This document shows, piece by piece, positions 1-1,579 of a stretch of 64,000 bases of DNA. Source of the DNA: Yersinia alsatica (lineage in GTDB: Bacteria; Pseudomonadota; Gammaproteobacteria; Enterobacterales; Enterobacteriaceae). The position numbers and the translations under genes are program-made. The notes below the pieces were generated by a model. That model did no database searches. It saw only the letters and a list, made by a program, of their open reading frames with translations, and was not told the DNA's origin. The stretch lies in contig NZ_CABHWW010000023.1 of assembly GCF_902170305.1 (NCBI RefSeq), positions 1 through 64,000 of the forward strand. The letters run 5' to 3'. Numbering within the stretch: position 1 is the stretch's first letter; each line of letters begins with the position of its first letter.

Positions 1-70
<70 letters not shown>

Positions 71-96
71 AATTTTTTCATTCAATTCAGTTTTAA

Positions 97-332
97 TTAT
101 CCACAGCCAAGTTACGCGCTGCACCCCGTTTCACATACATTGTATTAACTTCTTCAACAGAGTTATCCACAGATTCTGTTCTTTTTGTGTTCGGCTCATA
201 ATTTGACCGATTTAATTTCTTGTTTTATATCCATTTGATTTAATTGCATATATTTTTATGTGAAAACGTTATGCCGATCACTTGTGCTTTTTTTTGCACT
301 TGATTGACAAGGTGTTTTTATTTTTATGCACA
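97..332 (+). other. datA: datA-like cluster of DnaA boxes
   Basis: The gene-free stretch between the glycine tRNA and queG holds two perfect DnaA boxes, TTATCCACA at 97-105 and 163-171. A third, TTATGCACA at 324-332, fits TTATNCACA. All three face the same way. A sequence at 228-240 differs by one base from the IHF consensus read on the minus strand. In E. coli the datA locus, which binds DnaA and with IHF promotes DnaA-ATP hydrolysis, lies in this same place between glyVXY and queG. Boxes and position are seen; the function is inferred. No coding sequence is supported between 71 and 412. Confidence 0.7.
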
Positions 333-412
333 GGAAAACTCTGAGTTCATTGATTACAAAAATAGTTTAAAAAACTGCACCAAAAGTCATTCGACCTCAG
401 GTAAAAGTGGGG

Positions 413-1579
413 TTAGGCGTCTCGCGGCAGACCCTTTTCAATGGCTCTCACCAGCCGTTTTTTCTGCGGCGTTTGCACGTCCACAATCAGTGTAGACCGT
501 CTTTTCAATTGTTGTGATATTGCCCATTCAATATGTTCATCCAGCATGGGATGAATACCTTTGCGAGCTTCCAGCGCTAATACAATGCGGTCAAGATAGG
601 GCGCATTACCTAGTGCGACCGATATATTGCGCAACCAGCGCAGATGACCAATACGCCGAATGGCAGAACCTTCCGTTACCCGTAAAAATTTCTCTTCATT
701 CCAGGCAAATAAATCCAATAACTGTGGTGTGTGCAGCACTGCCCGCGGGCTGAAATCTTCTTCATCGGTTAATTGTGAGAAGCGGTTCCACGGACAAATT
801 AGCTGGCAATCATCACAACCATAAATCCGATTACCCATTAATGGTCGAAATTCTTCGGGTATTGCGCCCTCCAACTCAATAGTCAGATAAGAGATACAGC
901 GGCGCGCATCAACAGTGTAGGGGGCGACAATCGCCCCGGTCGGGCAGGTGGTGATACAGGCGACACAGCGCCCGCATTGCTCTTCTTGTGGTTTATCGAC
1001 AGGGAGTGGCAGGTCAATGAGCAACTCGCCAAGAAAGAACCAGGAGCCCGCATCGCGATTCAAAATCAGTGAGTGCTTACCAACCCAGCCAATCCCGGCT
1101 TTTGCTGCCAGTGACCGCTCCATTATCGGGGCCGAGTCCACAAACGGGCGAAAATTAACTTCACTGCCCGCCCCAGATTCCTGCTGCTCAAGACAATAGC
1201 TTTGGATTTGATCGCCTAATTTTTTCAGACGCTGGCGCAATAACTTATGATAATCACGGCCCAATGCATAACGGCTGACATAACCTAGTGCTGAATTTTT
1301 TAAGGTGCTGGCAAAGGCCGCCTTGGCAGGCAGATAATTCATGCGCACGCTGATTACCCGCAACGTTCCCGGTAATAGTTCATGGGGGCGCGCGCGCAGC
1401 ATACCGTGGCGGGCCATCCAGGCCATTTCGCCATGATATTGTTTATCAAGCCAAGCTTGTAACCGCGGTTCTTCCGTAGACAAATCCGTATCGCAGATAC
1501 CGACTTGCTGGAAACCTAGCGATTGCCCCCATTGCTTGATATGTTGGGCTAATTGATTCAGATCGAGGGGGTGTGCCAT
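413..1579 (-). CDS. queG: Epoxyqueuosine reductase QueG
   Basis: QueG carries out the last step of queuosine synthesis in tRNA, reducing epoxyqueuosine at the wobble base of GUN-anticodon tRNAs with cobalamin and two 4Fe-4S clusters. The 388-residue protein has the two ferredoxin-like cysteine clusters, CGRCVACITTCPTGAIV near residue 202 and CDDCQLICPWN near 256, plus the conserved VDSAPIMER segment with the likely catalytic aspartate. Length matches the family (about 379 in E. coli). It is transcribed away from nnr, and the two start codons share the four bases CATG at 1577-1580. Its promoter must therefore lie inside nnr. Confidence 0.96.
   Translation of the reverse strand: MAHPLDLNQLAQHIKQWGQSLGFQQVGICDTDLSTEEPRLQAWLDKQYHGEMAWMARHGMLRARPHELLPGTLRVISVRMNYLPAKAAFASTLKNSALGYVSRYALGRDYHKLLRQRLKKLGDQIQSYCLEQQESGAGSEVNFRPFVDSAPIMERSLAAKAGIGWVGKHSLILNRDAGSWFFLGELLIDLPLPVDKPQEEQCGRCVACITTCPTGAIVAPYTVDARRCISYLTIELEGAIPEEFRPLMGNRIYGCDDCQLICPWNRFSQLTDEEDFSPRAVLHTPQLLDLFAWNEEKFLRVTEGSAIRRIGHLRWLRNISVALGNAPYLDRIVLALEARKGIHPMLDEHIEWAISQQLKRRSTLIVDVQTPQKKRLVRAIEKGLPRDA

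What the first reader, a model, noticed from the sequence alone, without database searches (positions are those of the whole stretch)
97..332. A Yersinia counterpart of the datA DnaA-titration locus
Two perfect DnaA boxes 66 bases apart, a third near-perfect one and a one-mismatch IHF site sit in the gap between a glycine tRNA and queG. E. coli datA lies in exactly this place and uses DnaA boxes plus IHF to promote DnaA-ATP hydrolysis. The box number and spacing differ from what is described for E. coli (five boxes over about 1 kb), so the Yersinia version may be a reduced form or may extend into the tRNA side outside the window.
Basis: partly seen in the sequence, partly recalled or inferred. 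Interest (0 to 1): 0.72.

Follow-up and report, generated by a model that had tools for sequence, protein, structure and literature searches.

The report
Yersinia copy of the datA switch
This stretch is the Yersinia version of datA, a small non-coding DNA element that in E. coli helps switch off the protein that starts chromosome copying, and its layout is kept almost base for base in related bacteria.

Summary
It is not a reduced or differently spaced form. The parts that E. coli datA needs are a weak box 7, box 2, one IHF site and box 3. Counted from box 2, the window has them at -12, 0, +65 and +161; E. coli K-12 has -12, 0, +65 and +162. Box 1 is present too, and no perfect box was found on the tRNA side. 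In 106 of 106 queG loci (94 distinct sequences) a perfect box 2 is paired with box 3 at +159 to +164. DnaA domains III and IV match E. coli at 332 of 333 residues and both IHF subunits are encoded. The mechanism is most likely DDAH, IHF-assisted hydrolysis of DnaA-bound ATP; this is inferred, not shown. Two leads go beyond the passages I could read: a 63-bp stretch between IHF site and box 3 is as conserved as the IHF core, and a Vibrionaceae-like family carries a different, conserved DnaA/IHF array at the same locus. New member of a known kind.

The parts
1..70 (+). 3' part of tRNA-Gly (GCC), cut by the contig start; left neighbour
   Evidence: Rfam tRNA 1-67, cut at 5' end; exact repeat at other contig ends
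97..105 (+). DnaA box 1 counterpart, TTATCCACA (dispensable in E. coli)
   Evidence: -66 from box 2; E. coli -67; present with <=1 mismatch in 59 of 106 loci
151..159 (+). weak DnaA box 7 counterpart, TCTTCAACA
   Evidence: -12 from box 2 as in E. coli; 0 of 106 loci have a perfect box here, A at position 6 in 93 of 106
163..171 (+). DnaA box 2 counterpart, TTATCCACA
   Evidence: perfect in 106 of 106 loci
228..240 (-). IHF core site, AATCAAATGGATA, one mismatch to WATCAANNNNTTR
   Evidence: +65 from box 2 as in E. coli; at +65..+67 <=1 mismatch in 94 and <=2 in 106 of 106 loci
241..260 (.). A/T-rich flank on the 5' side of the IHF core, moderately conserved
   Evidence: mean 0.91 bits per column in 42 loci
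261..323 (.). unassigned conserved block with GATCACTTG at 276-284 and a T-rich run up to box 3
   Evidence: 1.18, 1.27 and 1.38 bits per column in its three parts against 0.39 in the spacer +10..+60; GATC at +113 in 33 of 42 loci; no consensus RNA fold on either strand
324..332 (+). DnaA box 3 counterpart, TTATGCACA
   Evidence: +161 from box 2; E. coli +162; perfect in 105 of 106 loci
413..1579 (-). queG, right neighbour
   Evidence: TIGR00276, 496 bits

Best explanation
[quoted passage not shown] ATP-DnaA sits on strong boxes 2 and 3, all in one orientation, with a further molecule on the weak box 7 next to box 2. IHF bends the DNA between them so that the box-2 and box-3 DnaA molecules can touch. 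The head-to-tail oligomer hydrolyses its ATP, ADP-DnaA leaves, and re-initiation at oriC is held off. Shown here: presence, order, orientation and spacing of each element described as essential, their conservation, the neighbours, and a near-identical DnaA with both IHF subunits in the same genome. Inferred from E. coli: binding, bending, hydrolysis and the effect on initiation.
For: Offsets equal to E. coli within 1 bp and alignment of the conserved islands. 106 of 106 queG loci keep box 2 and box 3 at +159..+164, 80 at exactly +161. IHF core at +65 in 36 of 42 dereplicated loci against 0.12% elsewhere. Elements described as essential in E. coli are fixed; box 1 (59 of 106) and a box-4-like site (12 of 106), described as dispensable or only stimulatory, vary. 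Pattern of paired boxes in 175 of 295 family genomes, reversed control 0. DnaA R281, R285, L290, R334 conserved, domains III and IV 332 of 333 identical; IHF alpha and beta encoded. About 0.44-0.61 Mb from mnmG/oriC in 11 of 13 Yersinia genomes, near the 0.47 Mb that the positions in PMC5742627 give for E. coli.
Against: No binding or hydrolysis data. No box 4 within 1 mismatch at the E. coli place. The IHF core has one mismatch here and two in some Yersinia. In 2 of 13 Yersinia genomes the distance to mnmG is 33 kb or 1.03 Mb. The E. coli terminator hairpin after the tRNA has no counterpart in the window fold (z -0.3 against -2.2), and 29 of 106 loci have no tRNA gene within 900 bp, so the E. 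coli timing model need not carry over.
Confidence: 0.88

Rival explanations
1. A passive DnaA sink: the boxes only bind and hold DnaA (initiator titration), with no hydrolysis.
For: datA was first described as a titration locus, and a direct titration part is still accepted for E. coli (PMC5835720, passages).
Against: A sink needs neither a fixed IHF site at +65 (36 of 42 loci) nor a box kept weak at -12 (0 of 106 perfect) nor one spacing for boxes 2 and 3.
Confidence: 0.07
2. A transcription block between the tRNA operon and queG: DnaA and IHF bound here stop read-through.
For: In E. coli, box 2 and the IHF site lower read-through into datA (PMC10950094, passages). The E. coli scan shows a terminator-like hairpin at the conserved block (849-871 of L089).
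Against: 29 of 106 loci have no tRNA gene within 900 bp yet keep the array; G127 keeps it although queG is found only in three pieces. The block has no consensus RNA fold in 42 loci, and the window has no such hairpin.
Confidence: 0.03
3. A chance cluster of boxes.
For: The number of boxes in the window equals the chance expectation.
Against: About 0.0065 such clusters expected per genome; geometry kept in 106 of 106 loci; 175 of 295 family genomes against 0 for the reversed control.
Confidence: 0.01
4. A DARS-type site that recharges DnaA with ATP.
For: Also a DnaA-box cluster with an IHF site.
Against: DARS cores have box I opposite to boxes II and III (PMC5742627, passages); here all three perfect boxes point one way.
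Confidence: 0.01

Closest known systems
E. coli K-12 datA (DDAH locus between glyV-X-Y and queG)
   Same: Neighbours, box 1, weak box 7, box 2, IHF core on the minus strand, box 3, all in the same order and strand and within 1 bp in spacing
   Different: No box 4 within 1 mismatch; box 1 is a perfect box here and one mismatch in E. coli; no terminator hairpin predicted after the tRNA
Array beside queG in family f21 (Vibrionaceae-like by inference; not described in the papers I read)
   Same: Beside queG, with tRNA-Gly upstream in 5 of the 6 loci first read; box-7-like ACA at the same place before TTATCCACA; IHF-like core on the minus strand; last box in the same direction
   Different: Inverted box 18-19 bp after box 2, IHF-like core near +122, last box TTTTCCACA at +262..+281, two GATC 22 bp apart in many loci
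DARS2
   Same: DnaA boxes plus IHF; reported as conserved in gamma-proteobacteria including a Yersinia (PMC8682772, passages)
   Different: Box I opposite to II and III, Fis sites, another locus (PMC5742627, passages)

Membership tests
datA (DDAH element) | Intergenic, between tRNA-Gly and queG | tested here: met
datA (DDAH element) | High-affinity boxes 2 and 3, same orientation, fixed interval | tested here: met
   163 and 324, +161; E. coli +162
datA (DDAH element) | Low-affinity box 7 next to box 2, same orientation | tested here: met
   151-159, two mismatches, -12 in both. Which E. [quoted passage not shown]
datA (DDAH element) | One IHF site between boxes 2 and 3 at the set distance | tested here: met
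   228-240(-), +65 in both, one mismatch
datA (DDAH element) | Accessory box 4 after box 3 (stimulatory in vitro, not required in vivo in E. coli) | tested here: not met
   no minus-strand match with <=1 mismatch after box 3; 12 of 106 loci have one. Not a defining feature
datA (DDAH element) | Near oriC, so that its dose rises soon after initiation | tested here: inconclusive
   own genome: datA and mnmG on different contigs; relatives 0.44-0.61 Mb in 11 of 13
datA (DDAH element) | DnaA residues used in DDAH and IHF present | tested here: met
   R281, R285, L290, R334; IHF alpha and beta
datA (DDAH element) | IHF-dependent hydrolysis of DnaA-bound ATP | not testable with these tools
   needs a biochemical assay
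DARS | Core of three boxes with box I in opposite orientation | tested here: not met
   all three perfect boxes on the plus strand

The most novel reading that the evidence does not exclude
datA is not an E. coli speciality but an old control element tied to the tRNA-Gly/queG region, in two conserved designs: a short form (IHF site at +65, box 3 near +161) in Enterobacteriaceae in the wide sense plus at least two further families, and a long form (extra inverted box at +19, IHF site near +122, last box near +275, paired GATC) in a Vibrionaceae-like family. Both perform DDAH with different IHF-DnaA geometry, and the conserved 63-bp block before box 3 is a further working part (another protein or a set DNA path).
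Probability: 0.5. Interest if true: 0.68.

Novelty: new member of a known kind. Interest (0 to 1): 0.46.

Why it matters
datA/DDAH has been worked out in E. coli; the passages I read treat its conservation among E. coli strains and mention only analogous box clusters in B. subtilis and Streptomyces. That the geometry is kept to about a base pair in Yersinia, Serratia, Pectobacterium, Photorhabdus, Pantoea and Escherichia suggests strong selection on the IHF-bent contact of boxes 2 and 3, although deleting datA does not change the growth rate of E. coli (PMC5835720, passages). It gives a natural mutagenesis series: what may vary (boxes 1, 4), what may not (2, 7, 3, IHF site), and a conserved block without an assigned role. 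Lineages without the tRNA neighbour test whether tRNA read-through is a general timer of IHF release. The long-form array makes DDAH with another geometry directly testable.

Tried and rejected
Upstream extension of the array: looked for, not found among perfect boxes. Rfam RNA in the gap: only the tRNA; in E. coli only tRNAs and two sub-threshold matches outside the gap. Sigma-70 promoters and hairpin terminators in window 1-450: 0 and 0 found; in the E. coli stretch 0 promoters and 2 terminator-like sites. Conserved block as an RNA element: no consensus fold on either strand in 42 loci (column shuffles gave the same, so the test has little power on these AT-rich columns). Conserved block as the E. 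coli yjeV reading frame: the ATG is not kept in the window (alignment); no formal coding test was made. Conserved block as a second IHF site: at +130(-) 36% of 42 loci match at <=2 mismatches; at +145(-) 93% do, but that falls in the T-rich run. Of the six pattern hits outside the family, five were set aside: G318, G337, G404, G436 are not at queG and G479 has no queG match.

Limits. Not examined: IHF sites in the 14 family loci that missed the strict pattern; whether each of the 175 pattern matches lies beside queG (the list of places was capped); genomes under about 2.5 Mb beyond the pattern. The 106 loci (94 distinct sequences) are not independent; the set of 42 was taken only from the 80 loci with +161 spacing (<85% identity). 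The 25 genomes and the 80 loci overlap in species. The two primary papers on minimal datA (PNAS 2013, JBC 2017) are not held; E. coli genetics here comes from passages of reviews and later papers. That no earlier report of datA outside E. coli was found rests on searches of an open-licence library.

Full report
WHAT WAS CLAIMED. Two perfect DnaA boxes 66 bp apart, a third box and a one-mismatch IHF site between tRNA-Gly and queG, read as a possibly reduced Yersinia datA.

CHECK. The boxes are at 97, 163 and 324 (all plus) and are the only TTATNCACA in 64 kb. The total equals chance; the clustering does not. The genome holds 185 such sites, so about 0.0065 clusters of three in 236 bp are expected genome-wide. 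The IHF core is 228-240 on the minus strand. The window is the start of contig C23 of a 5.0-Mb, 40-contig Yersinia assembly and begins inside the tRNA gene, a sequence found again at other places and at a contig end. The gap is 93% identical to G009, whose contig has the same length, 4,900,185, as the Y. frederiksenii ATCC 33641 scaffold. The species of the window was not established.

COMPARISON WITH E. COLI. K-12 datA (L089) and the window were scanned alike. Offsets from box 2: box 1 -67 in E. coli, -66 here; weak box -12 in both; IHF core +65 on the minus strand in both; box 3 +162 and +161. [quoted passage not shown] In L089 the stretch from the site at -12 to the end of box 3 is 183 bp, the length one passage gives for minimal datA; the same review also writes 262 bp and PMC13036160 writes 187 bp (passages). 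I therefore take the site at -12 as box 7, as an inference.

CONSERVATION. One genome-contig scan with queG gave 80 named loci, the best 80 of 284; with K-12 and 25 Yersinia genomes that makes 106 loci, 94 of them distinct. All 106 have a perfect box 2 with box 3 (105 perfect) at +159..+164, 80 at exactly +161. The IHF core at +65..+67 has <=1 mismatch in 94 and <=2 in 106. Box 7 is never perfect (0 of 106), with A at position 6 in 93. Box 1 is in 59, a box-4-like site in 12. In 42 dereplicated loci the IHF core is at +65(-) in 36, against a mean of 0.12% at other offsets.

SPREAD. Pattern TTATCCACA-N150-155-TTATNCACA: 175 of 295 genomes of the family, reversed control 0. By my reading of the table, 173 of the 175 are genomes of at least 2.5 Mb; the two smaller ones are G074 and G144, the latter a 0.9-Mb genome whose two hits lie in a 20-bp tandem repeat and are not datA. 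Of the 21 genomes of that size without a match, 16 have a queG match; 14 of these have the array there with a one-mismatch box 3 or a spacing of 154-165, while G092 and G056 lack it; G121, G231, G304, G134 and G177 have no queG match. In the order, 26 of 295 matched, 6 of them outside the family; the reversed control matched twice, both in G447. Of 27 queG loci outside the family, judged by perfect boxes and by datA-spaced pairs with at most one mismatch in all, 2 have the canonical array (L133, f5, +161; L141, f11, +165), 6 have another array, 19 have neither.

THE LONG FORM. In f21 the gap holds TTATCCACA(+) preceded by an ACA at the box-7 place, an inverted box 18-19 bp on, an IHF-like core near +122(-) and TTTTCCACA(+) at +262..+281. 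A pattern for it matches 61 of 121 f21 genomes, 6 of 13 genera, reversed control 0. Of 17 queG loci from genomes that missed the pattern, 10 still have TTATCCACA and TTTTCCACA 273-281 bp apart; L219 and L221 lack a perfect last box, L218 and L230 a perfect plus-strand box 2, and L227, L229, L231 do not fit. In 31 dereplicated loci the IHF-like core (<=1 mismatch) falls in +117..+126 in 22, against 0-6% in 16 other windows of that width; 9 of 31 do not reach that score. GATC stands at -92 and at -70 from the last box in 22 of 31 each. f21 is Vibrionaceae-like by inference: two large replicons of 3.26 and 1.69 Mb in G335, and the oligoribonuclease of G436 scores highest with PDB 6n6a (340 bits, against 283 for 1yta), which I recall as V. 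cholerae and E. coli. Its function is unknown; DARS-like DNA is reported for V. cholerae (PMC6090056, passages), and no datA on Vibrio chromosome 1 turned up in searches (listings).

THE UNASSIGNED BLOCK. Mean bits per column in the 42 loci: spacer +10..+60 0.39, IHF core 1.23, +98..+127 1.18, +128..+147 1.27, +148..+160 1.38, box 3 1.82, after box 3 0.23. GATC at +113 is in 33 of 42, GATCACTTG in 27. It has no consensus RNA fold on either strand, although the E. coli copy alone can form a terminator-like hairpin there. The passages I read describe the interval only by its length. It may hold a further factor (one review says that unidentified factors might help DnaA assembly) or set the DNA path.

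HOW IT WORKS. DnaA domains III and IV match E. coli at 238 of 239 and 94 of 94 residues, with R281, R285, L290 and R334 kept. IHF alpha and beta are encoded. The most economical reading is DDAH as in E. coli. The E. coli timing device, read-through from glyVXY past a leaky terminator (PMC10950094, passages), is less sure here: the window shows no comparable hairpin (-4.3 kcal/mol, z -0.3, against -14.3, z -2.2), and 29 of 106 loci have no tRNA gene within 900 bp; in 9 of 10 such loci checked there is none in the whole fetched locus. G127 keeps the array although its queG is found only in three pieces.

POSITION. The distance from datA to mnmG, which I take from recall to lie next to oriC, is 0.44-0.61 Mb in 11 of 13 Yersinia genomes with one large contig, 33 kb in G008 and 1.03 Mb in G021. 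Some of these contigs may be scaffolds.

VERDICT. Right locus, right idea, wrong about reduction and extension. A faithful datA orthologue and a new member of a known kind, with two leads (conserved block, long form) that are more novel than the finding itself.

Noticed in passing
L134, L142, L143, L149, L151, L153, L183-L214, L228 (family f21): A different, conserved DnaA-box and IHF array stands beside queG in a Vibrionaceae-like family: inverted box pair, IHF-like core near +122, TTTTCCACA near +275, two GATC 22 bp apart in 22 of 31 dereplicated loci.
   Followed up: partly
window 261-323: A 63-bp stretch between IHF site and box 3 with GATCACTTG is as conserved as the IHF core and has no assigned role in the passages read.
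   Followed up: partly
L138-L140 (G127:C1:616529-617601): queG is found only in three pieces, yet the datA array beside it is kept (box 2 to box 3 at +154).
   Followed up: no
29 of 106 loci, e.g. L042, L057, L059, L066, L075: The datA array is kept where no tRNA gene lies within 900 bp (Pectobacterium, Brenneria, Xenorhabdus, Photorhabdus and others).
   Followed up: partly
G008:C1:2808367 and G021:C1:1076725: Two Yersinia genomes have datA at unusual distances from mnmG: 33 kb and 1.03 Mb instead of about 0.5 Mb.
   Followed up: no
G144:C4:10-198: A 0.9-Mb genome of the family has a tandem repeat of 20 bp, each unit holding TTATCCACA: a DnaA-box array of another kind.
   Followed up: no
E. 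coli collection: datA DNA has a match in 5375 of 5426 complete E. coli genomes; 51 had no match at megablast sensitivity and 2 places are on plasmids.
   Followed up: no
G121, G231, G304 (genus g98): Three of three genomes of one genus with 3.5-3.7 Mb lack both a queG match and the datA box pair.
   Followed up: no
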